From Diplolepis rosae (Eukaryota; Arthropoda; Insecta; Hymenoptera; Diplolepididae): a stretch of DNA of 64,000 nt. The stretch covers positions 1,302,001 through 1,366,000 of the forward strand of contig JAPYXD010000700.1 in NCBI GenBank assembly GCA_030998225.1. Reading direction: 5' to 3'. Positions 45,765 to 64,000 of this stretch are shown here, piece by piece; the first letter of the stretch is position 1; the number at the start of each line of letters is the position of its first letter. The notes beneath the pieces are model-generated. The model searched no databases, was not told the origin of the DNA, and saw only the letters and a program-made list of their open reading frames with translations. A program made the position numbers and the translations under genes.

Positions 45765-46145
45765 CCGTAACCCTAGCGTAAAGTTGCATTATAACTTATG
45801 AATGAGGCAAAAAAAAATTACCATGTTTTTATTCTTATTTTACGTTAAAAATAACGATAAAAGTTAATGAAGATATTGCGATAATTTTAGTTATTATAAC
45901 GCTTAAAATTTTAGAAATATAATGTCTGTCCTTAACCTCTGCTAAAGGCGAGTGTCAAGAACAGACATTACATTTTAAAAATTTTACGCGTTAATAACTA
46001 CAATTATCGCTATGTCTTTATTACCTTTTAACGTTATTTTTAACTTAGAATAAGTATAAAAACATGTTAATTATTTATTTTGCCTCATTCATAAGTTATA
46101 ATGCTACTTTACGCTACGCTTGCGCTAGGTTTACGCTACAGCATA
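45765..46145. mobile_element. Palindromic MITE, CTAGCGTAAAG...GCCTCATTCAT family, copy 1
   Basis: Left arm CTAGCGTAAAGTTGCATTAT...ATGAATGAGGC and right arm GCCTCATTCATAAGTTATAA...CTTTACGCTA pair, with ACAGACATTA/TAATGTCTGT in the inner part. Same family as 51478-52049. Confidence 0.75.
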
Positions 46146-46926: not shown

Positions 46927-49900
46927 TTGCGGAATATAGACCAATCGCTGCCGTTAGTTTCCATAATATCTCCTCTGAATCGAAAAGTAACGCGGTCATG
47001 CAAATTTCCCGGTTGCGAAAAGAAATGCTACACTCCAATTGATGAAAATATGAAAAATCCACGCTTTCATAGGTTCCCACGTGATAATAAAAATCATAGA
47101 GCATGGAAAAATGTCTGTCAGATAGAGAGTTCCATTAATTGTTCACATTTTTACGTTTGCGATGATCATTTTGTCGAAATTGATTATTTTAACCATCTTA
47201 AGCAGAGAGGCACGTTTAACGCAGTACCATCTGCTTCGAAGAAAACAGGAGATGAGAAAAGCACAGTCTTATCAACCTACATTTGATGCAGAATCTTCGA
47301 GCACCGGTCTTCATAATCATACTTTTGCTTTACGTGATATTACAAATTCTAATTCTAAACCTGATTGCTGTCAGCAATCATCGAATATTTCATCTAATAA
47401 AAGTGGGGGTTCTCATTTTTCTGAAGAAAAAATTACTCGGCAAATAATGACCTTAAGGAACAATTGTCAAATTCTTACCTTCGAGATAATATTTCGATAT
47501 CTATTAATGAGGAATTACCTCCAAATTCTAACCTTCCAGATAATAATTCAATTTCTATCGGTGAGGAATTACCTCCAATTTCGAATGAAAATCTTCTTCA
47601 TTTGGGAGAATTATTAACTTGTAATGCACAAGGAGACGGATACCAGTTGCTTGAGGTGGATGCATCGAATAAAGGTACTGATTCCAATCAGAATCCTACC
47701 AAAAACAGAAAATCTAACCATGGATTTCTTTCACAAATAGGCTTACATCAAAGAGATCTTTCCCCTACAAAAGAGAAAATGTATAAAATTCATTTGAATG
47801 TCACAAATAGACTGTCAAAGCTGAAAACTAAATTGGAATTTAAAGAGGGAGAAATTAAGACATTACAGTATTTATATAAAAAAGATTTGTTTCATGTAAT
47901 TGAGAGAGATCTTAATGATGTATAACTAAGAACTTTATACATTCTCAATTAAGAAATAATAACAAAAAACCAACTCAGCGAAAATGGACGGTTGATGACA
48001 AGGCCTTTTTCCTCTCATGGTACAAACGTAGCCCAAAAATGTACACTTACTTGAGTTCATTTTTCATACTACCAAGCATTCGTTTACTAAAAGGCATTTT
48101 GTCTAAAATACCTTTCGATACTGGTATTAATGAAAGCGTCATAGAAAATTTAAAAAGTAATGTAATGTAATTATATTATGACGAAAACAAGCAAAAACTT
48201 ATTGGATATGAAGATATAGGCCATTTAGGTCGTTCCATTCGCAGAGCAAATCATGTACTCGTTTTTATGGTAAGAGGTGTTTCACGTCCGTGCAAACATG
48301 TTTTAGCCTATTACTTCACAGTCGGTACAATTTCTACTCAAAATTTAAAAAAACTAATAGTTCAATTAATCTCTCAGCTGCAGAGCATTGGATTAAACGT
48401 GATTTCTACAATTTGTGATCAAGGTACCACTAACAAAAGTGCTGTTACTCAACTGTGTGCCGAAACTAATCAAACGAAGGATCAGTTTTACTTTCTTGTA
48501 AATAATGAGCCAGTGACTGTGCTATTTGATATTCCTCATTTACTGAAAAATACCAGAAATGCATCATTGACATGCACATTATAAATGCCCGGGGAAAGTT
48601 TGTTAAATTTGAATACATTAGAAAAGCTTTTGAATTAGATCAAAAAAAGAAATTTCGATTGTTAGATAAATTAAAACCAGAATATTTTAATACAGGTGAT
48701 CATTACTATCAGATGAAAGTCAAAGTGGCAGCCGCACAGTTGAGTAGGAGTATGGCAGGCAGCATTGAACATTTTGTCGCGTCTAACCAATTACCTACAG
48801 AAGCTTTATTTACTGCCGAATTCGTGGAAATTAATGATAAGTTGTTCGACTCCATGAATGGAGCGACTGAACATGGAACTGATAATAAACCATACAAATG
48901 TGGTATAAGCGACACATCGCCTCACCTGTTATTATGGGATAAATTATCCAATGATATTCCCAAATGGAAATTATGAAATTATGTCACAAAAACTTTTTCT
49001 TTTCTAGACGGTTGGGTTTCGAATATGAAAGCGTTAAAGTTCTTATGGGCCACATTAAAAAAAGAAGGGTTTTCTTATTTGTGCGTCCGTAATTTGAATC
49101 AAGATCCGGTAGAAAACTTATTCTGCAACATCAGACAACACGGTATTGCGAACACCAATCCTACCTCTTTTCAATTTACTGTTGCATTAAAAACAGTTCT
49201 TATAAATAGCATATCGCAACCCACGAGCGAAAAAAGCAATTGTGAAAAAGACGATTGTCAACCCTTGGATAATTTGCGCGAATTTTTGAAAAATGATTAC
49301 GATGAAAATGTCTCTCCATCGGAAAAATACGTTTCGCTTAGAGAAGAAAAAGAATGTCCAGAAATACAAATTCATAATTTATCTTTTCACGATAGTTGCG
49401 ATATTTCTAGTGTAGCCAAAGAATTATTGGCCAGTCTACAAATACCAGACATATGTCAAACATGTCAAAAAGCATTGTTTCGTACAGAAATTAGAGAAAC
49501 AAATTTTCTTTCGCTTCTTGATGTCACGTTTATTGATCAGTCTGATAAATATGCGCAAACTTACGCCAGTGAGTCGTTCTTGTTATTGATAAAAAATACT
49601 TATCATTTCCTGTGGACATTTCTGCAAGAAAATGGGCACGAATGCCCTTTACACGACATTTTTTTACAATGATTTCAAAAAAACTGTTCTGCTTATCATG
49701 CTTTCTGTAAAGATCACTCTTGCGAGAAACTGATTGTAGAAGAATGTTTCCATATGGTAATCAGGAAATTCGCAAAAGAAAATAAAGTGGTTGAAGAGGA
49801 ACCTGTTGAAATTGTTCCAAAACCTGCAGTTTCTCAGATACCTGATATACCACATGATCTTCAAATTCAACATATTTCTTCAGAATTATCCACGGGACAT

Positions 49901-49942: not shown

Positions 49943-51477
49943 TTATTCATACTTTGAATTAGTTTGGGTCCTTCTTTGAGGCTAATCTATTGGGCTAAAC
50001 CTAAAATACTTTGCAATTTCTAGACTTTTCTACAGAATAATTTGGTATACCTGTTAAAATTTTATCCATAATTTTATCCACGTTCAAAGCCTTAAATTTT
50101 AATTATATAATTCATATATGACAATATATGCGTAAAAATACCTTGCATCTTTCAATAGCTGTCTCAGTATTTCTTATATTCAGATTCAATAATCCTGTTT
50201 GTGCCGCAGGTTTACTTCTTGTATGCATAATAGTTTACCGATTTAGTGTAACACTTTCCATATGTTCTGTCTTTTATGAATGGAGAAAAATCTCTTTTTC
50301 ATCGTGATATTGAAATGTATTGAACTTTCAACTTCATTACTATGTAAATATTGTTGAAAAATCAAAAATATTGATTAGTTGTATTTATTACTATTATTAT
50401 ATCAAGTTACGAGTTACGTGTTTCTGAATATTGTAATTCTTCAACTTCATTGTATTATACATATTGTTACGAATCAAAAAAGAAATATTTTTTCTATTGC
50501 CAAGTTATGAGTCCCTTAATAAATTATTTCAGAGTATCAAAACGTTTTATTATTTTAAAATAGTTGCATTATAATCTAATTACATTATATAGGACCTTAA
50601 GATATTCATTAATTGAAATATTTATCAAGCACTTTACTTCTTTCCCAATAAAAATAATTAAATTTTAAAAAAAAATTGTTCAATAAATTCATAATTCATT
50701 GAAGACGCACTTATATTGAACTTAAAATGCAATTACAAAATAATAAAAAAATTACTATAAGTACGTTTTTAATGAATTATGGATTTATTGAACAATTTTT
50801 TCTTCAAATTTAATTATTTTTATTGGGAAATAAATATAAGAAATATCTCGCAATTTGAATTTTCCGCCAAGGCGGCAGCGCAAAACTACTTTGATCAATT
50901 GAACAACTATTTTCACAATTGCTCAACGATCAACGTAGTTTAGTGCTCTTAATTCCCCACATGCTTCACCCCCATGGTTCCGTGGATTTCCTGATGTCCC
51001 TGCCATGATGAGTAGTATTCCTGTACAGGTCATTGCTGCTTGGCCTAGGATTTGGGTAACCATCCTTCTGTATATCAAAAAGGTTTTTTTTTTAATTTAT
51101 TAACGTTTTATAAGGCGTGTTATCTTCTGTTATGTTACTGTGTTGGTAAGGGAAGAAAGAAAAAAGCAACCTCCATATCCTCTCCCTTGATTTCATTATT
51201 CCCTTATTTTCATGAAATCAGGATATACAAATGTGAAAAATAATAAATTAAAATATAAATGTGATATAGGTGTATGTATGAAAATGAAGTAGTTAATAAG
51301 ATTTTGAATCAAATGTATATATAAATGTATAACTATTATAAAATAATAAAGGTGTTTCTGGGGTTTAAATTATTGATTGAACAATTTCCATTTAAACTTT
51401 CTCTATTTTCTTTTACAAGATTTTTTATAAAGCTACAGTGTTTTCATGAATTTAAATCAATATATATAATCCCTAAC
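49943..51477. other. Intergenic; one palindrome, otherwise nothing recognised
   Basis: 50640-50835 is a palindrome (TTTCCCAATAAAAATAATTA and complement TAATTATTTTTATTGGGAAA) of mini-element type. At 51063-50923 (minus) a 46-codon ORF starts with a hydrophobic signal-peptide-like run; it is too short to call. Confidence 0.45.
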
Positions 51478-52049
51478 GAACTGGCTGAACGCTAGCTTTA
51501 CCCTGTAGCGTAAAGCTATCGTAAAGTAGCATTATAACTCATCAATGAGGCAAAATAAATATTCAAAATCTTTTTATCCTTATTCTACGTTAAAAATAAC
51601 GTTAAAAGCTAATGGACATATGCAATAATTTTATTTATTAACGCTAAAAATTTAAAAAAACATAATACCTGCCATTAAAGGCAGTGCAGTGGTTCATCAC
51701 TTTCCATGTCTTCACCGTCAGGATTGACTATTTGTTAGAGTGAGATGAAAGTATAGTTGTGCCTTACTCCAACCAATGTCAACTTTAGCGGCGGAGACGT
51801 TCCACAAAAGGTGAACCGCTGCACTGCCTTCAATGACAGGTATTATGTTTTTTTTAAGGTTTGGCGTCAATAAATAAAATTATTGCATATGTCCATTACC
51901 TTTTAACGTTATTTTTAATGTAGAATAAGGATAAACAAAATTTTGAATAATTATTTTGCCTCATTCATGAGTTATAATGCTACTTTACGATAGCTTTACG
52001 ATAGCTTCGTTACAGCGTAAAGCTAGCGTTCAGCCAGTTCGCTAGGGAT
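51478..52049. mobile_element. Palindromic MITE, CTAACGAACTGGCTGAACGC family, copy 2
   Basis: Left CTAACGAACTGGCTGAACGC at 51478 pairs with GCGTTCAGCCAGTTCGCTAG ending near 52046. Arms continue through CATTATAACTCAT.AATGAGGC and ATTATTGCATATGTCCATTA. The central part is a GC-richer inverted pair (CCTGCCATTAAAGGCAGTGC). Complete copy of the family at 45765. Confidence 0.85.
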
Positions 52050-52498
52050 ACTAATATGCATCTAACATAACAGTGATATGTATCTGATAGTAAGAATATA
52101 TATGATAATAATAATGATATATAATGGTGATAATATATAATAGTAATAATAATAATGATAGTGTGGCTATAGACACATGAGGGTCTCCGTGACATAACCG
52201 TTTTAGGCGCGCGATACATTTTCCGTTTCTCTGTTCGCGAGGCAAAGTGCTGGAAAAGCATTGTCCGAGAGAAAATTTCGGAAAATGAAGGAAAAAAAAA
52301 TGAAATAATTTTTTGTTATAAATAATTACATAGTTTTTTGAAATAGTATGAACTTAACATAAGGTTACATAAGATTTTTTTGTTAATAACTAAATACATC
52401 AATAATTTTTATTTCATATTCGTAAATTATATCATGCTATAATATAAAACGTAATTTTATGATATCGTAGATTAGTAAAAAAAATTTTTTTTTTTTTT
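52050..52498. other. Intergenic, low-complexity; expected place for a 3' LTR
   Basis: ATAATAATAATG-type low-complexity DNA, then unique sequence with CGCGCGATACATTTTCCG. If the minus-strand gene block is one retroelement, its 3' LTR should be here or further left. I see no convincing LTR or polypurine tract. Confidence 0.3.
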
Positions 52499-52948
52499 TC
52501 AAGAATTATTTTTATATTTCTTATTACGTAAGGGGTTGCGGCAGTTATGAGCTAAATGCCCTCTTTGAAAACACCTTTCACAAGAGTTGGTCCATTTTTG
52601 CAAGGTTTCTTTACTGATTTCATCACTTATTTTAAAAATTTTCGATTCTGGGATTAAGCTTTTTTATTTCATTTCTTCTAAAAATACATATCTTGTGGAA
52701 AGCATTTCCAAGAGTTTAGATGCTGTATTTTGCTTTGCAGACTTTTTTTGAGGGGCTGGTTCCCCAATACAAGAAAAAGTTATTTTATTTTTAAAGATTT
52801 CGCAAGTTGCTTGGAACGGTGGCAGTTCTTGGTGTTTTCCAAGCGATTTTACAATATATGAGGGTTCGGAGAAATCATACTCAATGCTTATCTCGTTTAA
52901 AACTTGTACAGCAGTGCCTTTCGATAGGTCTCTTGTCTGCAAGGCCAT
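52499..52948 (-). pseudogene. dsRNA-binding domain plus CCHC zinc knuckle, one in-frame stop
   Basis: Start chosen at ATG 52948, nine bases after the acceptor-like TTCTTTTGCAG. Residues about 15-85 form a dsRNA-binding domain: TAVQVLNEISIEYDF, a central beta region, and the C-terminal helix with KKSAKQNTASKLLEML, whose lysines and alanines match the RNA-contacting helix of the family. An in-frame TAA at 52664-52666 follows. The same frame then continues to a perfect CX2CX4HX4C zinc knuckle (CERCFQRGHLAHNC) and TGA at 52499. Likely role: binding double-stranded or element RNA, perhaps as a silencing suppressor or nucleocapsid-like factor (inference). Related in design to 58208-58790. Confidence 0.72.
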
Positions 52949-52963
52949 TGTTTTGATCTGCAA

Positions 52964-53301
52964 AAGAATTACCTGTTTGAGTTGATGATTGAATTTATTG
53001 AAATTCTAAAGTTAGTTAGTTTTTTTTGTAATAATTTTGTGTTTGTTGATATATTCACTTTCCGCGTTTCCTAACTCAAAGAGATTTTTCATGCAGAGAA
53101 AACAGTGATCTGTTTTTAAGAACATTTTAATTTATTAAGGTTTGTCGTTACATTATAGCGGTTAAGGAAGAAGTAGTGGCAATATGTTTTTAAACAACGA
53201 ATAAAAAATTAAAAGGGAAAATTTTTTAACAAAAGTTACTAATTGATATTGTTTATATTTAGAAAAAGGAATAATAAAAAATATGTTTTGATTTATTATT
53301 T
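52964..53301. other. Intergenic between accessory ORFs
   Basis: No gene. Just upstream of 52948 (minus strand) is the acceptor-like pyrimidine-rich TTCTTTTGCAG. Confidence 0.4.
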
Positions 53302-53733
53302 TTATTCGTCGTTGTTATAAATAATGGTGGAAGCTTCGGAATTGACGTCGTTATATAATGCTTCTTGTTGGCATAAATGAATTACACGTTCGGCACAAGT
53401 TACGCATAAATCTGCTCTTTTCCGCATGTAAAAAATTTGTGTATTGCAAATGGAGCAGTCGAGGCTAGATAGTTTTAACGTACAATATAAGTCTTTAGTA
53501 ACTATGTGATCTATTCGGGCGGGTAATGTTACTTCGGTTTCGAAAAAGCTGAGTTCTGTCATCCAACAATCCTCGCAAACAAGTTTTTTTTCGAGAACAT
53601 TCATGTAAAAATTCTCGACCAGGGTTGTGCAGCAGTATTCTGACCATAATTGATTTTCAAAATACGGCTGAACATCCTGCTCGCTTGCTCGAACTTCTTC
53701 TGCTTCGATTGTTTCGATTTCTTGGGGCAGCAT
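53302..53733 (-). CDS. Cysteine-rich protein 1, zinc-binding, unknown family
   Basis: 143 residues, intact. The ATG at 53733 follows an acceptor-like TTTCCCCAACAG by four bases. An acidic N-terminus (ETIEAEEVRASEQD) is followed by CC, CEDC, a C in the middle, CSIC and RKRADLCVTC near the C-terminus, so several paired CxxC motifs likely bind zinc. It is related to the next ORF upstream (53873-54280): both have C..C, then CxxC, then an RKRA-x-x-C-x-x-C signature. I do not recognise the family. Its place among dsRBD and envelope ORFs suggests an accessory, possibly RNA-binding or regulatory, function. Confidence 0.6.
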   Translation of the reverse strand: MLPQEIETIEAEEVRASEQDVQPYFENQLWSEYCCTTLVENFYMNVLEKKLVCEDCWMTELSFFETEVTLPARIDHIVTKDLYCTLKLSSLDCSICNTQIFYMRKRADLCVTCAERVIHLCQQEALYNDVNSEASTIIYNNDE

Positions 53734-53872
53734 TTTTCTGTTGGGGAAATTTACAATATTTAAGGAATTTGAAATATTTGAAAAATTTACAATTTTTTAG
53801 TATTAAGGATTTTATTAAATTTAACAAAATTTTTCATGCGTGATTACATGCGTGGAAGGTAGATACGTATAA

Positions 53873-54280
53873 TCATGCAGGGATATTTTCTACTAGAACT
53901 TCGTTTCCTTGACTAATTTTGAATTTATAATTTAAATATTGTTCGATACATTCTCTACAATCAGCTGCTCTTTTTCGCGGAGTAATTAATAGTTCTTGAC
54001 AACCGTAACAATTCATATATATGCATTTCAATTTACAAATGGAATTCCATGAAGTAAAAACTTCACAGTTATTTTGAGTTTCCTGATCTAATTTCTCGAA
54101 ACAGAATTGACAATATCTTTTTGTGGTTTGATGGTTATAATATAAAAACAATGTTGAGGGTTCTAATTCGAAGCAATAACTTTGTAATAGGTGCGCGTGT
54201 GCTATCGGATAGTCCTGCGGACGTACACCGTCTACTCGTCCAAGATGGTTAACAATAGGTTCACTTGGAGTTGGTATCAT
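53873..54280 (-). CDS. Cysteine-rich protein 2, paralogue of protein 1
   Basis: 135 residues, intact. The ATG at 54280 follows an acceptor-like CTAACAATTTGTAG by three bases, with CTAAC as a possible branch point. Cysteine motifs: CQFCF at mid-protein, a C-rich KLKC...NCYGCQEL block, and PRKRAADCREC near the C-terminus. The shared RKRA..C..C motif and order of cysteine pairs with 53302-53733 indicate an old tandem duplication. Unknown family. Confidence 0.6.
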   Translation of the reverse strand: MIPTPSEPIVNHLGRVDGVRPQDYPIAHAHLLQSYCFELEPSTLFLYYNHQTTKRYCQFCFEKLDQETQNNCEVFTSWNSICKLKCIYMNCYGCQELLITPRKRAADCRECIEQYLNYKFKISQGNEVLVENIPA

Positions 54281-54856
54281 TTTCTACAAATTGTTAGAAT
54301 AGATTTATTTTATTAAGGTCTGATAAGGAGATTGAAAAATAACTTTTTGAATATATTTTCTAATCATGCAAGGTAAAAGATTTTGCTAAAGGTGTTTTAC
54401 TTTCCGTCAGAAAAACAACTTTTATATTACAGTTTGTTTTTTTCTTTAGTAAGAAATATTAAAGGCGTGGGTACAAAAACTGTCCTTCTGACGGTATAGG
54501 ATTTACAACGTTCATGCACGTGGTTTTGAGGAAGGTAAGGACGGAATGTGCCTGTATCTGAAAAAATTTCTGAGGTGACTTTGAGTCTATATATTAAAAA
54601 AGGGTAAAAGGAAGATAGAATAAAGGGATGGTCAAAAGTAGAGTTATGAGTCATATAAAAAAAAGGTTTCGTTTGAAAAGGGATTATTTGGTACAAGGTA
54701 ACAAAATTGTTCTTAGAAAATTAGTTACGGATTTTCTCTAGTTGCTGGTAAAAAAAGAAAATGGAAGGAGGAATATGGTTAGGAGTTAGAACTTGGATTT
54801 TAAGATTTAGTCTTGTAGATTCTTCTTTCAAGTTTGAAGTATTACGTGCGATTGAA
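54281..54856. other. Divergent spacer between accessory ORFs
   Basis: Separates the minus-strand cysteine-rich genes from the plus-strand spliced gene. A minus-strand ORF at 54696-54427 has no M near an acceptor and no domain, and is not called. Confidence 0.4.
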
Positions 54857-56105
54857 ATGGAGGAAATTTTTGAATTGTTAAGTGAAGTTGATTTTAGTTC
54901 CGTAGAGTTTGAGCGTAGTGAAGATATAGACATAGAAAAATTGATTGAGGAAGTTAGAGATGGAAGTGTCGCGGACAGGAGTGATTATAATAATTTAATT
55001 CATGAGTTAGGTTTGATTGAAAATGACATTAAAGTGAGTAATAGAGAAGCAAGAGACAGCAGTGCTATTATAAGGGAGTTAGAGAATGTAGGTTTAGAAT
55101 TTAGACATAAAAGTGGTGTAAGAGTTGGATCCGTAGAGACTGTTAATCGGAATTTAGGTCCAGTCAACGAACAAAGAATAGAGAATTTTTGTGGGGGGGT
55201 TTTAATAAAATGTCCCTTAGGCTGAAATGAATTTCCAGCTAACGAGAGGGTCACTTTGCTTAATACTCTGAGGGAGCAACTAGCTTTCCATGGAATAGCT
55301 GGTGCTTTCTATTTGAAGAATATTTTTTATGAAGTTGATGAGAAGAATGACCTGAAGATTGTAAGTATTTAAAACGATAATTTTTCTCTAATGTATATAT
55401 TTGAATATTTCTTAAATATATTTATTATTTTTTGTATACAGTTGGATCCGGCCAGAATTCGGCGGATGCCTGATGGTCGGAGATTAAAGAGGGCGCTGCC
55501 AAAGTTGGAGAACAACGTTCTTCAACCTCCTTTGGCATGGTCATCCAATCGTCGTATGAAAATAGACGATTGGATAAGGCCATATTATAAAAATCTTAGG
55601 AGTCCTTTTGTTTCCGGTGGCATGAGGTGGAAATTACAGGAAGAACGAATCGTACGAGTAAGTGTGAATGAGATTGTTAAATTTCAGTATGACTTAAAAT
55701 TATCTCAAGATTTGTATTTATTAATTGTATTTGTTTTTAGGTAGGAAGTGAAAATTTAAAATGGACTGGGCAGGATTCATCAATGTCCGTAAATGAAAGG
55801 GATCGTATCTTCGAATACAGGGGCAAAAATATAAAGGTGCCCCTGGATTGGATGTACGTTAACCCGAGTAGGTTGAAGAAAAATAAAGCCCTGCTGAAGG
55901 TTATCTTGAATAATGAAAGGGAGGGGGCTCCATTTATAATAAATGAGCAACGATATCGTCTGGTCAATGACGAGATTGTACAGGTAATATTTGCAAATCC
56001 AGTCAATTTTAGTTTTGGATACTGAAATTAAATAGTATTAATAAGAAATTTTTATTCTCTTTTTTTTAGTATTGGGACAACTGCGAGGAATTATTTTTAA
56101 GATAA
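54857..56105 (+). pseudogene. Four-exon gene of unknown family, opposite strand, one in-frame stop
   Basis: Exons 54857-55360, 55442-55657, 55741-55983 and 56070-56105 are joined by three short GT-AG introns (81, 83 and 86 bases), all in phase 0, giving about 332 codons. An acceptor-like TTCTTCTTTCAAG lies just upstream of the ATG. One TGA at 55223-55225 (codon 123) interrupts exon 1; the same frame resumes at once with plausible protein (NEFPANERVTLLNTL). N-terminus acidic; middle rich in arginine (RIRRMPDGRRLKRALPK); C-terminal part with aromatic and basic residues. No family recognised. It is antisense to the surrounding envelope/dsRBD block. It could be a captured host gene, an antisense gene of the retroelement, or an unrelated neighbour. 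Confidence 0.65.
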
Positions 56106-56358
56106 TTTTGTATATTTAAGTTTCGTGTGATGTTTATCGGTATATTTATTGTTATTTATACATATTGTAGTAATAGTGTTGTATGTTTTGTAAATATTAG
56201 TTTATATAATAATGATAATGTTTCTACGGTAGTCATAGTGTGTATATTTGTTTATTTATATAGATTTATGTATGACGATTTGTATTGATTTTGTTATTTA
56301 ATATATATTATATTTTATTCTAATCTCTGTGCAATTTATTTCAATATGAATTTTCATA
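56106..56358. other. Convergent spacer
   Basis: AT-rich sequence between the plus-strand spliced gene and the minus-strand envelope gene. No feature recognised. Confidence 0.4.
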
Positions 56359-58148
56359 TTATTCGTAGTCAAAGTTAAATGTTAAGTCAGTGAGTAACGG
56401 TTTTGTCACTGAGCTTAAAGGAGTTTTTTGTATAAGTTCTATACGTGTTGGCGTTTTGTTTATTTTTTTAGATATTTTTCGAATTTTCAATAGTAATAAT
56501 CCTAAAATTGTAATCATAAGTAAAGTGATAAAGATTAGTGCTAATGTTAATTTATGTGCACTAGAAATAAAAATCGATGGAATGATTTTTTGAATGTTTA
56601 CATATTTTGTAAGGATAAAGACATGGTTTTCGAAGATTGATAATGGCATGTCTTCTTTTTGCTGAAGAAGAAGTAATACCTTTTTTAGTAAGTGAGGCTC
56701 TTGAATGGAAATATTATATAAAAATGGTGAAATTATAGCAAGGGAAGTAGTTGATTTGCTGACTGGAATTGAATTATCCATTATATTCAAATGGTTTTGA
56801 AGAAGGTAATATGGAGTTGATGAATCTAGATTGCAACCTGTTTTTTTTGCAAAATTCCTATTCCTTGGAGTGTGATTAAGGTCTTAGAGTTTTTTCGACA
56901 TGATAAGAAAATTTGTCGGGGGAAAATTGTTGAGTATAGCCATCCATGATGAAATTGCAATGGTGTTAGAAAGGGATATTCACTAAAACTGATGAATATT
57001 TCACACTTGTATGGTTGAGAATTTAGAAACATTGATGTTTCACAAATAGGATTGTTATCGATATTAGATATAGATCTTGGTGGGTGACAAAATGTTTGGA
57101 ATCCATTTTGATAACATGCATTGAGGAAATTTTCATTTGTTATAAAGTATGATTGGTTATTTGAAGAAATAGCGAGATAAGAATTTTGAAGTTTTATGTA
57201 AATAGAGGAAATTACGTCAGTATTAAAATCGAGATGTATTGGAATTGGATGTGGTTTAAATAATTGAAATTCTTCAGCAGGTGGGATTGGTATAGTCATA
57301 ATAAAAATCAAGTACTTATCGAATAAGAAGTTTTGTATTTTAGAAAATGGAAGGACCATAGAAAAAAGGGATGTTGAAATGTGTGGGTCTTCTTTGTTGG
57401 ATTTGAAGTCTAAGAAGGTATCAGGAAGTAGCATAGGGTGCCATAAATTAGTTGCGGCATTGGTAATAGCTTCTGTAAGTTGGTCAAGGAGTAAAAGAAA
57501 AGATTGAGAAATTTCATGCAGGTCTTTAAGCCAATTTGCTGCTAATATTTGATATAGGTGAATATTTGGATCTTTTTGAGAATTATGCCATTTTTTGTAG
57601 GTCATAATGTTGTCAAGTTTTGAAGAAAGATTTGTAACTTTTTGGAAAAATGGATTTGGAAGTAGAAATAAATTTTCTTTGGGCCAGTAAAGGGAGGTTT
57701 CCTGTCTCATTCTTAATTCTAAAAGTACCTTTCGTATATGTTTTAGGAATGGATCATTAGTTTTAGAAATATTCGTGATATTACGAGCTTGTCTAGATAT
57801 AAATGATATTTCTTCAAGAAAATAGTTGATGCGTTGTTCTATAAAATCAAGTTGTGTCTGATGATCGTATAAATTACAATTATTTGCAATATTTGAGAGT
57901 ATGCAATATTCATATAATTTATGTGAGAAATCTATTATTTTGTATTTAAGTACGTCTGGCTGAAAGATATGGATATAAGATATAAAATGATATTTTTCAG
58001 AAAAAAGACGAACTTTTGAAATTGTTTCAAAATAAATCCCCGAAGAATGAGAAAATTGTGAGTCTATGAAGTATTTTTCTGCTTTGGAGAAAAGGAGTGG
58101 AATTAAAATTGAATACACTCTGGATGCTAGTTGATTAAGGAAATTCAT
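56359..58148 (-). pseudogene. Second envelope-like glycoprotein (F1-like with TM anchor), one frameshift
   Basis: Minus strand, ATG 58148, preceded by a strong acceptor-like CTACTTTTCTTTTTCAG. The large part (58148-56826) is a helical ectodomain and then a cysteine-bearing membrane-proximal region (ACYQNGFQTFC, CETSMFLN, YKCEIF, SCRK). Its order resembles insect errantivirus/F-type envelopes and the broken gene at 43462-45160. The frame changes at an eight-base homopolymer near 56841-56848. The other frame carries the last part (to 56359) with a clear transmembrane segment (LTLALIFITLLMITILGLLLL) and a basic cytoplasmic tail. No furin site or fusion peptide is recognisable near the N-terminus. 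Probable role: surface glycoprotein of an endogenous retrovirus-like element. Confidence 0.65.
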
Positions 58149-58207
58149 TAGGCTTCTCGGAAGGCTGAAAAAGAAAAGTAGGATTAATATTGGATAAAAT
58201 AGGATGT

Positions 58208-58790
58208 TTACATATGGTTGGATTTAGGTCTAAAAGTTTTTTGGAGAAAAGGGGAAAAAAGTCTACGAAATGTTGAGGAGTTTCTTGGTGGAACTGGAGG
58301 GGGAAATTGGGTTGATTTGTCTACTTTAAAAATATTTCGTCTACGGCACTCTTTTGTAGCATGCATTTGAGTGTTACAAAATCTACAGGAATTTTCCCAA
58401 GGTATTAATTTTGGTCTTGGATCGGTTTGAATACTTTGATTTTTGGTTTTTTGCCTTTTTTTATCATCATTATTATAAAATTTTTCGTCGCAGAGATCGT
58501 ATGATCTTATTAGTAGCAATAATAATTTTAAAGCTGCTCTATTTTCTGCTAATTCACTAGTAGGGCCGGCTTGTATAACAAAATGTTCATTTATATTAAT
58601 TTGTGCAAGAAAAAATGACTGTTTTCGAATTTGGGTCAGGATAGACTGTATATTGCGGTAACGGCAGTCCATATTTTATCGTGAAGTTTCTTAAAATTTC
58701 TACATGATTTAAAAATTCCATGGAGTCTGTTCTGTATTTCTTTTTTGGGTAACTTGGTAAGTGTGTAGGCTCGTCGTAGTAATGCTCCAT
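58208..58790 (-). pseudogene. dsRNA-binding domain plus CCHC zinc knuckle, frameshifted
   Basis: ATG 58790 is preceded by acceptor-like CCGATTCAG. The first frame (58790-58596) holds the N-terminal half of a dsRBD (NHVEILRNFTIKYGLPLPQY...). The second (58672-58208) holds its end (SELAENRAALKLLLLL, the C-terminal helix) and then a perfect CX2CX4HX4C knuckle (CRFCNTQMHATKEC) and a basic, proline-rich tail. The frame switches at a T6 run near 58610. The same dsRBD-then-knuckle order as 52499-52948 shows that these are one protein family duplicated within the block. Confidence 0.68.
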
Positions 58791-58827
58791 TGCAGTTGAT
58801 TTCCTGAATCGGTATGGAATGCTTATA

Positions 58828-59565
58828 TTAGAATTTATTGTACTGGTTGGGAGGTCTATATCCGCATTTAAAACATTTTTTAAAGCTTTTCGTAGAGAAA
58901 GATGATGCAGTATGATTATTATTTGTTTTCATTTTATATGAATTTGTATTTTTATCACGATTGTTATTTGAAGTAATAGGTTTAGTTATTTGGCTACTCG
59001 TTGAAGGTTTTGGATCGTTTATAGATGATTCTTGAATTGTTACATGCAAATGTTCTAGTGAGTTTATCAAACGTAGTTCACATTTCTCGTTTTTATGGGA
59101 AAGAGAATTAATAACTTTTCTGGCAGCAAAATCCTTAGCTGTTTTTATTGAGTTTGCTATTCCTATTTGTTTAATGTTATTAATGAAACAAATTGCTATG
59201 TATGTTGAGTCTTTTGATGAGGTTTTTATTCGTAATACTGTATATTTTGGATACTCAAATTTATTTTGAGTGCAAATTTCGTTTAATTTTTTGCAATTTT
59301 TACTAATAGAATTTGGTTGGACGTTTTGATTTGTTTCCTTTGATTCATTAATTAAGGCATTATATAAATTTTGTGCTACCTTTTGCTTTACATTTTCTTT
59401 ATCTTTGCCACTATTCATTATTATATAATTTTTATATTGTAAATTAACATGAAATAGACATTTATTATTATTGGTTTGTTCAATGAGTATCTCATAAATG
59501 AGGGGTGGATCTCCTCTTTGTTGAATAATTTTGTTTAGTAAGGTTGTAAAAGGAACATGCGACAT
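58828..59565 (-). CDS. Protein with two dsRNA-binding domains and partial zinc knuckle
   Basis: 245 residues, intact. ATG 59565 lies one base after an acceptor-like TCTAACATCAG with a possible branch point. Residues about 5-72: first dsRBD-like domain (TTLLNKIIQQRGDPPLIYEI...KQKVAQNLYNALI). Residues about 90-160: second (KLNEICTQNKFEYPKYTV...AKDFAARKVINSL). A serine/asparagine-rich linker leads to CFKCG, the first half of a zinc knuckle, but the protein stops before the H and last C. dsRBD proteins bind A-form RNA regardless of sequence; in viruses they often block Dicer or dsRNA sensing. Assigning that role here is inference. Confidence 0.68.
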   Translation of the reverse strand: MSHVPFTTLLNKIIQQRGDPPLIYEILIEQTNNNKCLFHVNLQYKNYIIMNSGKDKENVKQKVAQNLYNALINESKETNQNVQPNSISKNCKKLNEICTQNKFEYPKYTVLRIKTSSKDSTYIAICFINNIKQIGIANSIKTAKDFAARKVINSLSHKNEKCELRLINSLEHLHVTIQESSINDPKPSTSSQITKPITSNNNRDKNTNSYKMKTNNNHTASSFSTKSFKKCFKCGYRPPNQYNKF

Positions 59566-59572
59566 TCTGATG

Positions 59573-61354
59573 TTAGATTTGGATAGAGTAGTGGGTTCTA
59601 CTAAGTTCTTCTTTTAGTTCAGAGTGAGGATAAAGAGTTGTGTTTGTATTATTGTGATCTTTACCTGAAGTAGTATTTGCGTAATACGATGGACTTTTAG
59701 GTGCCTCTTTCGAGCTTTGTGGCGCTGAAGCTGTTAGCAGTTCTTGATGACTCTCAGCAGGAGGTCCAGAAGGTCGATGGGTACCTAAGTGTAATAAGAG
59801 GTTAGTGACCGAATCCCGGAAGGCGCCTAGTAGATTGAGAGACCATCCAAATAATTTGTGTAGCGCATATCCATGAATAATGGTATCAGCTATCAATTTA
59901 ATCCCTCTAATTATTATTATTAATCCAATTAGGCCTGCACTAGTAGTTCCAAAACTTGTAAAAATTGCCCAAAATCTACCCCATGCGGATTCAGCAATTT
60001 TATCAATTACATCTTCATTAAATAAATTCGTTAATGATATTCCTTGATTAATAGTTGGATGTCCTGTTATTTCTCTAGCTAAAGAATTTAGAATCATTGG
60101 TTTTTCTGCTGGAAAAATAATATGATCTCGCAGTTTATCAAGATCAGATTGAGAATAAATGCCACTTGTTGCTAAGGATGAAGGATTTGTGTATTTCCAG
60201 GTTGCTTTTGTGAGAGGTTTAACTATAGTTGGTGCTATGGATTCGACAGGATTTGGAAGTAATTTGTACCAAGTTTCTCCAAAAAGGTACATTGGTGGAA
60301 GGAAAGAATTGCAATTTGTTTGGATACCAGATTTTGTTAATACATGAGTTCGTGGAGAAAGGAAAAAGGACTGATTCCCTCTAAATATTGGTAGTTGTAG
60401 ATAACATTCTTCAGTTTTACGATATTCTACTTCAACCGGTATACATTTTACGATATGTACTACTTCTCCTGCAATTACTGACATATATCCTGGACCTTTC
60501 ATTAAATGATATGCAAATTCGTCTGGTGATTGGGTTGCTAAGGTTAATGTATTTCTAAAAACTTGCTGTTCAAGTATGCATCGTTGAGTAAGAACATCGT
60601 GATAAAGTCTATTTACTTCAGTGCGTATATGTCGTTCTACATATATAAATTTAGAGTTAACGTATGTAAAAATGTCCATATTTTGAATTTCTAAATGTTT
60701 ATTTTCTAAAAATGAATTTCCAGGTCTGGTTTCAAAAATTAATAATTTTGGATGTTCGGTTTGTATTAAAACGTAACTGCAAACTGGTAATGTAATGTAA
60801 TGGTAATGTTCTTGTAAAGTTATTTTAAATATTGCTTGGACTACGACATTATTCCATGTTCCATATGGGTCAGAAAATTGTGTACCAGTACAGTCTCCGT
60901 TAGGTGTTACAGAACCTGCTAAAGTAACGCTATGAAATGAAGTTTCGTTTACTTTTAACTTTGATATCTGAAGAGAAGGAGTTACTAAAAATGTTCCCAT
61001 TGTGTGCATTTGATTACATTGATCTCGTGTAACATCATGTATATATTCACTGTGGCCATTTGCTACTATGGAACTGTGAGAATGCATACTACAATGAGAG
61101 ATAGCGCGTCGAATTTCTATTTTGCATTGTATTACTTTTGTATTTTAAAATCCAGTTAATTGTAAAAGTTGTATATAAGTTCTTTCAACATGTACTTGAG
61201 ATCGAGGTAGATCACATTCTCCTACCTCTAGTAAAGATAATGTCGTAATATTTGATTGATTTGAACCGCAATCGAACCCTATGATGGCGTAGACTGTTGT
61301 TATATAGATGAAGTTGCAAGTGAGCAGTGCCAAAAGGTAGCCTCGTAATCCCAT
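59573..61354 (-). pseudogene. Chuvirus-like (Jingchuvirales-type) glycoprotein, one in-frame stop
   Basis: ATG 61354 is preceded directly by a strong acceptor (CCCCCTTTTTCCAG). A signal-peptide-like start (LLALLTCNFIYITTVYA) is followed by GFDCGS and a VGECDLP region. The same frame continues to 59573 except for a TAA at 61145-61147 (codon 70). Other visible blocks: MHTMGTF, DPYGTWNNVVVQAIFKI, CYLQLPIFRG, LRDHIIFPAEKP and a C-terminal membrane segment (GLIGLIIIIRGIKLIADTII), then a proline/serine-rich tail. The order matches glycoproteins of chuviruses, which are known as endogenous copies in arthropods and as captured envelopes of LTR elements. Length about 593 codons. It would mediate particle entry. 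With the stop, only the tool-visible part downstream of 61145 is open. Confidence 0.75.
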
Positions 61355-61473
61355 CTCTGGAAAAAGGGGGTTCCGATTAGCAGCTTGCTTTGTAATATAA
61401 GAATAGGAAAATGTTTTATCATTACATATGTATATTTTTGAAGTTATTGATTTACTTTTTGTATTTTGCGTTC

Positions 61474-61755
61474 CTAGTTCATTATATCCAACATGTCGGC
61501 TATGACAATGTGATTTGATAGCCGTAAACTGAGAATTAAATTTTTGTATGCGTCCGGTCCTCTTGTTTTGATTGTTGAAAAAATGTCTTTTATTATTTCT
61601 GGATTGTTTAGATTTCTGCTCCATGTGGGGATATTACAGTCGTCTTTCTTAAAAATTCCAGTTTGAATTAAGTATGGCCAGAGAGCTACCATGTCGATGA
61701 AACAGGGAACTATTTCAATGAGATCATCTATGCGTTTGCGATGAATTTGTTCCAT
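61474..61755 (-). CDS. CARD-only protein (Dronc/caspase-CARD-like)
   Basis: 93 residues, intact, ATG 61755 five bases after acceptor-like CATTATTCCAG. The whole protein fits a caspase-recruitment domain: MEQIHRKRIDDLIEI at the start (helix 1), a GIF turn, then IFSTIKTRGPDAYKNLI and LRLSNHIVIADML. The RGPxAYxxLI signature and final helix are like the CARD of insect initiator caspase Dronc. No protease domain follows. A CARD by itself would be expected to compete for the apoptosome adaptor and damp cell death (inference). It sits between integrase and glycoprotein, a place where retroviruses and errantiviruses keep spliced accessory genes. Confidence 0.68.
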   Translation of the reverse strand: MEQIHRKRIDDLIEIVPCFIDMVALWPYLIQTGIFKKDDCNIPTWSRNLNNPEIIKDIFSTIKTRGPDAYKNLILSLRLSNHIVIADMLDIMN

Positions 61756-61759
61756 TATA

Positions 61760-61987
61760 TCTGGAATAATGTGTTATGTCTGAAATTTCATTTTTATTTT
61801 GTTTTATATATTTTTTTATTTTATATATAAAACATATATTTTCATAAAAAAATTTTTTATTTTTTATATTTTTACTATTTATCGACAAAATAAAATTTCT
61901 ATATCTTATTTAAATTGTATATGTATATATATATATATGAATATATATATATTAATGTACAGATATTTTGTTTCTATTTTTATTTAT
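61760..61987. other. Very AT-rich spacer between integrase and CARD ORF
   Basis: TATATA-rich with no open frame of interest. The plus-strand ORF here is compositional. It contains possible acceptor sites for the downstream CARD mRNA on the minus strand. Confidence 0.5.
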
Positions 61988-64000
61988 TTACTTTTGTACT
62001 TGCACATGTGAGCGTTTTAGTCTATTAATGTGGACAACAGTAGGTTTGCCTTTATAGCTTATTTTTACATTTCATTTTCCTAACACTTCCAATATTTCAT
62101 AAGGCCCTGTATAATGACTGTCAAGTTTTTTTAATTTTACCTCCTTTTAATAAAAATACGTAATCTCCAATTTTTACTTCAAAAGGATTTATTTTTTTGT
62201 CATAATATAATTTAGATTTTTCTTTTGCTGAAATAAGATTTTCTCTTGATTGTGTTCGCATTTCATGTAGTTGTGTTACGAAATTAATTAAATAATCGTC
62301 ATATGTTTGTAGTTTTTCTTGTTGTGATAAAAGTTCACTGGAAGGTTCACGAGCTAGTTTACCAAAAACCAATTCATAGGGTGTGCATTTTTTGCCTTCA
62401 TGTACACTAGTATTATATGAGAACATTGCTAGTTCAAGCCAATCATCCCATTCTGAATTTTTTGCAACAAATTGTTTGAGATATTCTCCTAAAACATGAT
62501 GTGAACGCTCTAATGACCCGTTTGATTGAAGGTGAAAAGCTGTGGTACGAAATTGTTTAATTCTAAAACGTTTTGCCAATCTTTTTAATAAATTATTTGA
62601 AAAATCTCTGCCTTGGTCAGTAAGTACTCCTTTCGGTGATCCAAATATGCAAATAAATTTTTTCACGAAAGCGTCTGCTATCGCACTAGCTTGGTGATTA
62701 GGAAGAGGTATTGCTAAAGAATATTTGGTAAAATTCTCTTGTATCGTTAGAATATATAAGTTACCAGATTTTGTTTCAGGTAGTGGACCAACAATGTCCA
62801 TTGATATTTTTTCAAAAGCAGTAGTGGGTGTGTCAGTGATTACCATAGGGTTTTTTGTTTTGACTCTGATTAATTTTTTCAGTTGACATTGTAAACAGCC
62901 TTGAATATATTTTTGAATGTCTACTTTCATATTTTCCCAAAAAAATGTTTGGCGAATTCGGCTATAAGTTTTTGTAACGCCTTTATGGCCTCCTAATGCT
63001 GAAGAATGAGCTTCTTCAATTAAATGAGTTCGTTGTTCCTTTGTTGGATATTGCGTTATTCCATTGCAAACTATAATTTTTGTAGTTGAATTTGAAAAAA
63101 TTGAATCGAAAATTGATTTCACTTCTTCCCAAGATATATGATTAATTCTGGAAGTTTTTGAAACACTAATTGTTCGCAATTTAACTTTTTGAGATAATTC
63201 ATGTAATGAGTGAATTGATAATTTTATATTATTTAAAGTTTCTGATAAATTTTCCTTAGTTTCTTCTTCAATTGGAAGTGCAAAATGGTAGTAGTTTCCT
63301 TTTTTAATCTCTTTTGCTATTCCCTTTTGTAAATTTTTAAATTTTGGTAAAGTTTCACGTTTTTCTAAAATTTTTGATCCGCTGTCGCGAGGAGTTCCAT
63401 TTGTTGTAACAAAATATGCATAATTATCTTTTCGCATAGTTAATTGATCGCGACATTCGACTATATTTTTCTTCGTTATAATTTTTTCTGTTTGAGAGTT
63501 TATAGGAGGAGGTTCTGGGGGTGGACGATTACAATCATCATGATCATTATCGTTTTTTCCAGAATTTATTTGAGATCTTCGGTTTAGTTTCAAATTTTCA
63601 TTAAAATAAGGCTCTTCAAATTCTTCTACCAATTTTTCTTCTCGGTTTTCTTCAAAATTTTCTTCAAAATTTTCCTCAAGATCGTCTCCAAAATTTTCTT
63701 CATAATTCTGTTCAATATTCTTCTCAAAATCTTCTTCAAAATTATATTCCAAATTTTCTTCATAATTTTCTTCATTATTTCCTTCGTGTGAGGTTTCAAT
63801 GTCGTTGATTTCATCTTCTGAGGTTGAAAAATAATTTTCACTTTCAAATTCATTAATATTTTTTGGCTTCTTGGCATTCTTCTTATTTTTGTTGCTTGCT
63901 TGAGTTAGTTTCAAATAATCTAAATATTCAGGATCAGAGTCGGAATTTGATTCTACTTTTGTTCGGCTTCCTTTTTGCATATTTATTTTTGGTAATTCAT
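61988..64000 (-). pseudogene. Ty3/gypsy integrase, 5'-partial at window edge, frameshifted 3' end
   Basis: The frame is open past the window end (64000), so the true start and the protease/RT/RNase H parts lie outside. From the right: an unusual acidic E/N-rich repetitive stretch (EENYEENLEYNFEEDFEKN and following, about 63770-63610), a proline patch, then the integrase. Its HHCC zinc domain is HLIEEAHSSALGGHKG...CLQCQ. The catalytic core has D in SMDIVGPLPE, D in LTDQGRDF and E in GSLERSHHVLGEYL. The C-terminal domain starts FEVKIGDYVFLL. At the A-run near 62123-62130 the frame changes. The rest (SHYTGPYEILEVLGK, VVHINRLKRS) is in another frame with one TGA, ending at TAA 61988-61990. The GPYEIL/VVHINRLK tail is typical of gypsy/errantivirus integrases. 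Confidence 0.85.

What the first reader, a model, noticed from the sequence alone, without database searches (positions are those of the whole stretch)
52499..64000. Complex retrovirus-like element with CARD, dsRBD, cysteine-rich and two glycoprotein genes
Seen: downstream of a gypsy-type integrase, on one strand, lie a CARD-only ORF, a chuvirus-like glycoprotein, three ORFs with dsRNA-binding domains (two followed by CCHC knuckles, one by half a knuckle), an F-like envelope gene and two paralogous cysteine-rich ORFs. Known: errantiviruses carry gag-pol-env and chuvirus-type G genes have been captured by LTR elements. I know of no described insect retroelement with this accessory set. Inference: the set looks like host-defence antagonists (CARD against Dronc-dependent apoptosis, dsRBD and Cys-rich proteins against RNAi), as in complex retroviruses.
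Basis: partly seen in the sequence, partly recalled or inferred. Interest (0 to 1): 0.92.

Follow-up and report, generated by a model that had tools for sequence, protein, structure and literature searches.

The report
Complex endogenous retrovirus with antisense genes
A very large virus-like jumping element, present in many recent copies in this animal genome, carries two different cell-fusion genes, a set of likely host-defence blockers and, on its opposite strand, an intron-containing gene; I found no description of such an element in the papers I could search.

Summary
The block is part of one mobile element, not a chance cluster: in 7 of 7 copies checked, near-identical LTRs with perfect 4-bp target duplications enclose the set (17.6-19.3 kb). 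Pairs of the genes recur in fixed order and strand in up to 103 copies; all six traced genes in 20 of 96 (capped lists). Against diverged copies the accessory genes show purifying selection (dN/dS 0.09-0.33). A more distant lineage has INT-CARD-G, with the CARD above Pfam's cut-off. New here: between F and Cys1 lies an antisense four-exon gene, AS1; 85 of 88 scored splice sites are canonical in 18 copies of two lineages. A second antisense gene, AS2, follows it in the sister lineage. Sense ORFs start just after splice-acceptor-like sites, but no leader donor was found. The anti-RNAi and anti-apoptosis reading is plausible and untested. Many copies lack AS1. The window copy is damaged (G, F and AS1 broken, no 3' LTR found). 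Host unknown. Searches of openly licensed papers found no such animal element.

The parts
62121..63998 (-). 3' part of pol with integrase (broken C-terminus in this copy; runs past the window's end towards RT, PR and gag)
   Evidence: other copies have pol frames up to 1652 aa
61474..61755 (-). CARD-only gene, 93 aa
   Evidence: AG 5 nt before the ATG
61145..61354 (-). G (chuvirus-type fusion glycoprotein), N-terminal part, broken off from the rest in this copy
59573..61087 (-). G, main part; lacks an internal coding stretch that other copies have
58828..59565 (-). dsA: two dsRBD stretches and half a CCHC knuckle, 245 aa
58208..58672 (-). dsB: weak dsRBD plus CCHC knuckle (knuckle by eye); N-terminus altered in this copy
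56826..58148 (-). F (baculovirus-F-type envelope), main part
   Evidence: AG 16 nt before the ATG
56359..56790 (-). F, C-terminal part with membrane span (separate frame here, one 596-aa frame in L013 and L014)
54857..55360 (+). AS1 exon A (antisense gene; one in-frame stop in this copy)
55442..55657 (+). AS1 exon B
55741..55983 (+). AS1 exon C
56070..56105 (+). AS1 exon D, ends at the stop codon
53873..54280 (-). Cys1, cysteine-rich, 135 aa
53302..53733 (-). Cys2, cysteine-rich, 143 aa
52664..52963 (-). dsC: dsRBD; the CCHC knuckle of other copies (149 aa in L036, L042) is out of frame or absent in this ORF
52305..52663 (-). rest of the 3' region alignable to other copies; the alignment stops about 230 nt short of where their 3' LTR begins

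Best explanation
The block is part of one damaged copy of a young, multi-copy complex endogenous retrovirus of the Ty3/gypsy (Metaviridae) type. Shown by sequence: gag-pol, PBS-like and PPT-like sites, then a conserved order of sense genes (CARD, class III-type G, dsA, dsB, F, Cys1, Cys2, dsC) between LTRs, and in part of the copies an intron-containing antisense gene AS1 (in the sister lineage also AS2) between F and Cys1. Inferred: gag-pol come from unspliced RNA; downstream sense genes come from spliced RNAs that use the acceptor-like site just before each ATG; the antisense genes are transcribed from internal promoters and spliced. Antisense orientation is what lets their introns survive passage through the genomic RNA. 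G and F serve exit, entry or cell-to-cell spread. CARD interferes with CARD-dependent caspase activation. The dsRBD-CCHC proteins bind dsRNA, including dsRNA that two-strand transcription would make, and blunt Dicer. My odds: anatomy about 0.95, spliced expression about 0.7, host-defence roles about 0.45; the figure below is for the whole without the defence roles.
For: LTR pairs 98.95-100% identical, own 4-bp TSDs, PBS- and PPT-like sites in 5 of 5 copies and LTRs plus TSDs in 2 of 2 AS1-bearing copies. Linkage on one strand. Purifying selection. AS1 splice sites 85 of 88 scored; AS1 dN/dS 0.26-0.36 in 4 of 5 sister comparisons (0.55 in the youngest) with 0-1 stop-containing codon pairs; 37 of 37 AS1 places with a listed sense neighbour are antisense. 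AS2 with TATA and initiator in 2 of 2 copies read. Acceptor-like sites before sense ATGs: 5 of 7 positive against 13 of 163 other ATGs.
Against: No RNA data of any kind. No GTRAGW or MAGGT donor in the leader of 5 of 5 copies. dsA and Cys1 acceptors score below zero. Many copies lack AS1: 5 of 9 loci spanning the junction have the short form, so AS1 is dispensable for amplification; main-lineage AS1 dN/dS is 0.40-0.87 on few changes. The window's CARD is below the Pfam cut-off. Fold models failed. Host and tissue unknown.
Confidence: 0.8

Rival explanations
1. The dsRBD-CCHC, Cys-rich and CARD proteins are not defence antagonists but RNA-handling or structural factors (packaging, export, localisation or translation of an 18-kb RNA; assembly), like extra nucleocapsids.
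For: CCHC knuckles are a nucleocapsid feature and sit behind dsRBDs in dsB and dsC; the genome is unusually long.
Against: A CARD has no obvious packaging role; a dsRBD protein of an invertebrate virus is a proven RNAi suppressor (PMC4231766, abstract). No direct evidence either way.
Confidence: 0.35
2. AS1 and AS2 are passenger genes caught from a host or another virus and carried in antisense without a role for the element.
For: Many copies lack AS1 and these amplified well; no similarity to the retroelement's other proteins or to any Pfam family.
Against: Constraint in the sister lineage, splice sites kept between lineages 38-54% identical, AS1-AS2 pairing in 30 of 42 sister places.
Confidence: 0.25
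3. Chance juxtaposition of unrelated elements and viral fragments next to a gypsy integrase.
For: 45 of 113 listed integrase copies had no listed partner.
Against: LTRs and TSDs enclose the set in 7 of 7 copies checked; of 4 unpartnered integrase copies inspected 3 do carry CARD and all or part of G; partner lists were capped.
Confidence: 0.01

Closest known systems
Insect errantiviruses / iERVs (gypsy, ZAM; Metaviridae), PMC12992720 passages
   Same: Ty3/gypsy-type pol, F-type envelope related to baculovirus F, LTRs, 4-bp TSDs (TSD length of errantiviruses recalled)
   Different: Two and a half times longer (recalled 7-9 kb); second, unrelated fusion glycoprotein; CARD, three dsRBD, two Cys-rich genes; antisense spliced genes
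Anakin (BEL/Pao elements with chuvirus-type G in mosquitoes), PMC7642597 passages
   Same: Chuvirus-type glycoprotein captured by an LTR retroelement
   Different: Here the pol is Ty3/gypsy-type and an F-type envelope is present as well. PMC10084718 (passages) saw no clear Gypsy capture; PMC13172572 (passages) mentions gypsy regions with type III fusion glycoproteins, so this point alone may not be new
Plant Retand, Grande and RIRE2 LTR elements with antisense ORFs, PMC7264820 and PMC11963269 passages
   Same: Conserved antisense genes between pol and the 3' LTR; Grande's has its own promoter
   Different: Plants; different proteins; the word intron does not occur in either text, while AS1 has three introns and AS2 one
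Complex retroviruses with antisense genes (HTLV-1 HBZ), recalled and cited in PMC11963269
   Same: Accessory genes by splicing (inferred here) and an antisense gene
   Different: Other family, no homologous accessory proteins, antisense promoter in the LTR there and internal here (AS2, inferred)
Iridovirus IIV-6 340R RNAi suppressor, PMC4231766 abstract
   Same: Single-domain viral dsRBD protein in invertebrates
   Different: DNA virus protein; no direct comparison was made

Membership tests
Metaviridae (Ty3/gypsy) | gag and PR-RT-RH-INT order between LTRs | tested here: met
   CCHC-bearing gag (knuckle profiles 20.6-22.1 bits, just under cut-off) and RT, RNase H in copies A and D, protease only a weak hit (E=0.009) in the window copy's upstream piece; integrase; LTRs
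Metaviridae (Ty3/gypsy) | GPY/F motif after the integrase core (recalled hallmark; named in PMC12440569) | tested here: met
   SGPYEV by eye in the integrase end of L072; the window copy's integrase breaks before it
Metaviridae (Ty3/gypsy) | RT phylogeny inside the family | not tested
   no reference set at hand
Errantivirus / iERV | F-type env downstream of pol | tested here: met
   Baculo_F 66-79 bits, cut-off 24.1
Errantivirus / iERV | Env from a spliced subgenomic RNA | tested here: inconclusive
   strong acceptor-like sites before G and F, no leader donor found, no RNA
Errantivirus / iERV | pol tree position in the gypsy/gypsy clade | not tested
   no tree made
Anakin | BEL/Pao-type pol with chuvirus-type G | tested here: inconclusive
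   G met; the pol has an H2C2-rve integrase and a GPY motif, read here as Ty3/gypsy, but no BEL/Pao profile or tree was run
CARD domain (PF00619) | profile match above cut-off | tested here: met
   met by the L072 orthologue (30.9 v 23.9 bits); the window copy itself has 15.3 bits; fold model unusable
dsRBD suppressors of RNAi | dsRNA binding and Dicer inhibition | not testable with these tools
   only the dsrm profile and a KKSAK stretch in dsC like the recalled dsRNA-contact motif

The most novel reading that the evidence does not exclude
An animal LTR retroelement that runs as a true two-strand complex retrovirus: eight sense accessory genes, each behind its own splice acceptor, and one or two antisense, intron-bearing genes with their own promoters, whose orientation protects their introns from loss in the genomic RNA. 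Because both strands are transcribed, the element makes its own dsRNA and carries a family of dsRBD proteins to survive the RNAi it provokes, plus a CARD decoy against cell death.
Probability: 0.4. Interest if true: 0.95.

Novelty: new variant of a known kind. Interest (0 to 1): 0.88.

Why it matters
Invertebrate endogenous retroviruses are usually described as gag-pol-env. A recently amplified element with two unrelated fusion proteins, a CARD gene, a dsRBD family and spliced antisense genes would show that complex retroviruses also arose outside vertebrates, would supply natural candidate counter-defence proteins for RNAi and apoptosis, and would show a natural use of the antisense-intron arrangement. 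LTR pairs up to 100% identical mean recent activity, so it could be studied by RNA sequencing of the host once the host is named.

Tried and rejected
Chance juxtaposition: rejected. An intron in G: a stretch of about 246 nt in other copies but not in the window copy was tested as an intron and rejected; it reads as coding and lacks GT-AG ends. 'The stretch at 54.4-56.3 kb is an insertion private to this copy': rejected, it is an element gene. Troyka: not it; Troyka has no envelope (PMC12440569, parts 1-3 of 5 read). AlphaFold models of CARD and Cys1: mean pLDDT 53.8 and 42.1, not used, no fold search made. PDB searches: for the CARD alignment a designed protein at E=0.0098 and Caspase Dronc at 0.65; for the Cys alignment a thiolase at 0.21; for dsC a Dicer homologue at 1e-3; for G only glutathione transferase at 0.035. 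Viral-contig scan with dsA: 2 pattern hits, no relative. Host identity: genome-size paper search empty, no (TTAGG)6 array, no tRNA in the window. Leader splice donor: none found. Paper searches list no such animal element (two returned nothing); only openly licensed papers are held, and Chary and Hayashi 2025 (289 metazoan errantiviruses), seen only as a citation in PMC13172572, could not be read. Papers seen: PMC12440569 parts 1-3 of 5; PMC7642597, PMC10084718, PMC12992720, PMC13172572, PMC7264820, PMC11963269 by passages; PMC4231766 abstract and outline; all others as listings only.
Full report
What is there. Pfam identifies integrase, G (Monjiviricetes_fusion), dsA and dsC (dsrm) and F (Baculo_F) above cut-off; CARD falls below it in this copy and dsB has no hit. 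CARD is secured by relatives: 9 of 13 aligned homologues match PF00619 at E<=0.1, and a 46% identical ORF between integrase and G in another lineage (L072) scores 30.9 bits against a cut-off of 23.9. In other copies dsB has a dsRBD-like region (20.8 bits, cut-off 23), dsC a dsRBD plus CCHC knuckle, F is one frame of 596 aa and G one frame of 766 aa.

It is one element. The window lies in a 757.7-Mb genome of unnamed species. Comparing only the two ends of five copies, I found LTR pairs of about 763 bp, 98.95-100% identical, beyond gag on one side and dsC on the other, 5 of 5. LTRs begin TG and end CA; each copy has its own perfect 4-bp duplication; a PBS-like 18-mer lies 14 nt after the 5' LTR (tRNA-Gly-GCC by recall) and a G-rich PPT-like run ends at the 3' LTR. 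Lengths are about 17.6 kb. Two copies that carry AS1 are 18.9 and 19.3 kb, with 4-bp duplications (GTAT in both); their LTRs are 99.7-100% (436 aligned nt; the 3' LTR has an internal deletion) and 99.5% identical (435 nt compared). Between these LTRs the lists show integrase, CARD, G, dsA, F, Cys1 and dsC in 4 of the 7 copies; the other three lack one listed gene each (CARD, F, Cys1), and the lists were capped. The gag start was found in 5 of 5. dsB and Cys2 were not traced genome-wide.

Copy number and linkage. Genome searches list at least 83 scored G, 150 dsA, 96 F, 150 CARD, 150 Cys1, 150 dsC and 113 integrase copies, about 87-100% identical; only part of the candidates was scored, so these are lower bounds. 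In those lists 95 of 96 F, 134 of 150 dsA, 137 of 150 Cys1, 129 of 150 CARD, 129 of 150 dsC and 68 of 113 integrase copies have another of the six traced genes (G left out) within 14 kb on the same strand; gene pairs on opposite strands occur only 0-4 times per pair. The best-linked pairs are Cys1-dsC (103) and CARD-dsA (102). Twenty of 96 F copies have all five partners listed. Of the 45 unpartnered integrase copies I read 4: two carry CARD, G and the start of dsA; one carries CARD, the start of G and then F tail, Cys1 and part of Cys2; one carries none of the genes but a piece of LTR.

Selection and lineages. Against diverged copies dN/dS is 0.22-0.32 for CARD, 0.17-0.31 for G, 0.23 for dsA, 0.25 for dsB, 0.16 for F (0.25-0.33 for its tail), 0.12 for Cys1, 0.09 for dsC and 0.11 for integrase; for F, Cys1 and dsC dS is 1 or more, so these ratios are rough. 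Cys2 could not be scored because dS is saturated. Among young copies ratios are noisy (0.09-0.36 for most, 0.70-0.73 for F, 1.45 for one Cys1 pair on 7 changes, 0.13 for Cys2). dS between the window copy and the C117 copy rises along the element: about 0.2 at integrase, CARD and G, 0.32 dsA, 0.51 dsB, 1.0 F, 2.3 Cys1. I read this as recombination between two old lineages of the same layout. L072 is a third: INT 74%, CARD 46%, G 43-73% in pieces; only 2.2 kb of it was read. Five places share its CARD score.

The antisense layer. The stretch between F and Cys1, which looks like an insertion, encodes a protein on the plus strand in four exons, all phase 0: 54857-55360, 55442-55657, 55741-55983, 56070-56105. 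The same gene sits at the same place and orientation in the C117 copy, with 38, 54 and 49% identical exons A, B and C. Across 18 copies (12 main, the window's included, and 6 sister) 85 of 88 scored splice sites are canonical; 2 of 90 could not be scored. In the sister lineage dN/dS is 0.26, 0.27, 0.30, 0.36 and, for the youngest pair, 0.55, with 0 or 1 stop-containing codon pair; in 11 main-lineage comparisons it is 0.40-0.87 on few changes, so relaxed or unresolved. Exon B has 118 genome matches. Of 59 main-like places typed, 37 had a neighbour among 36 hand-picked sense-gene rows, all 37 on the opposite strand; of 42 sister places typed, 30 have AS2 within 2.5 kb on the same strand. AS2 (51 matches) is preceded by TATAAATA and, about 32 nt on, TCAGTT, in both copies read; it has one intron in L048. 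No Pfam family fits the four exons scanned (AS2 exon 2 was not scanned). AS1 overlaps none of the sense genes, so its constraint is not borrowed. AS1 lies inside LTRs in 2 of 2 copies checked. Of 9 loci that span the junction after F or before Cys1, 4 have AS1 sequence there and 5 the short form.

Expression. Seven of seven sense ATGs tested have an AG within 16 nt upstream; a simple acceptor score is positive for 5 of 7 against 13 of 163 other ATGs in the same stretch, and none of 20000 random draws reached the observed mean. dsA and Cys1 score below zero. dsB was left out because its start is altered here; in L003 an AG lies 13 nt before its ATG. A consensus donor was not found in the leader of any of 5 copies. 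Separate spliced RNAs are likely, unproven, and their donor is unknown.

How it may work. The layout suggests unspliced RNA for gag-pol and packaging, spliced RNAs for the accessory genes, and separate antisense transcription. Introns survive in AS1 because sense RNA cannot be spliced at reverse-complemented sites. Two-strand transcription would make dsRNA, and three dsRBD genes are what such an element would need. A viral dsRBD protein that binds long dsRNA and stops Dicer-2 is known (PMC4231766, abstract). CARD-only proteins can compete for CARD contacts (general knowledge). These functional steps are inference.

Against what is known. Errantiviruses have gag-pol-env with an F-type Env from spliced RNA (PMC12992720, passages). 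Anakin is BEL/Pao plus chuvirus-type G (PMC7642597, passages). A 2023 survey saw no clear capture of such G by Gypsy elements (PMC10084718, passages), while a 2026 paper mentions gypsy regions with type III fusion glycoproteins in mosquitoes (PMC13172572, passages), so G in a gypsy element may not be new by itself. Plant Retand, Grande and RIRE2 elements have antisense ORFs; the word intron does not occur in the two texts searched (PMC7264820, PMC11963269). The paper searches made list nothing with this set; the most likely place for a description, Chary and Hayashi 2025, was not available.

State of the window copy. It is damaged: G and F frames are broken, G lacks an internal stretch, dsB and dsC are altered, AS1 has one stop, and similarity ends near 52305 with no LTR match in the window. 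Intact frames of single genes exist elsewhere in the genome.

Noticed in passing
window 48267-49672 (+): Three ORFs of a decayed DNA transposon with TNP-like RNase H and GTP-binding insertion domains (P-element/THAP-type).
   Followed up: partly
window 51469-52049 and 45766-46127: Palindromic repeats (inverted arms 86-93% complementary) that look like short terminal-inverted-repeat elements just beyond the end of the retroelement; one may have removed the 3' LTR.
   Followed up: no
window 63601-63792 (-): A 12-nt tandem repeat (12 overlapping register copies listed) encodes an acidic E-E-N-F-type run in pol upstream of the integrase, an unusual addition.
   Followed up: no
C117:611387-617400 (L045, L049): Short relative: CARD 89%, start of G, then directly F tail 65%, Cys1 62%, Cys2, dsC 73% and an LTR; dsA, dsB, most of G and F and AS1 are missing. 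An internally deleted or recombinant form.
   Followed up: partly
L002 plus L048 (C117:682352-692872): dS jumps from about 0.2 (integrase, CARD, G) to 1-2.3 (F, Cys1) along one copy, pointing to recombination between lineages.
   Followed up: partly
protein database hits P0001-P0089: 52 CARD, 28 Cys1 and 9 AS1-exon-A homologues (54-96% identical) lie on short ENA contigs of unnamed origin; relatives therefore occur in other deposited sets, or in reads of the same species.
   Followed up: no
LTRs of copies A-E (L034-L043): The LTR carries a shifted self-match of about 56 nt (85.7%, offset about 33 nt), so it holds a short internal tandem repeat.
   Followed up: no
G000: No exact (TTAGG)6 array in the genome; telomeres are another type or not assembled.
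   Followed up: no
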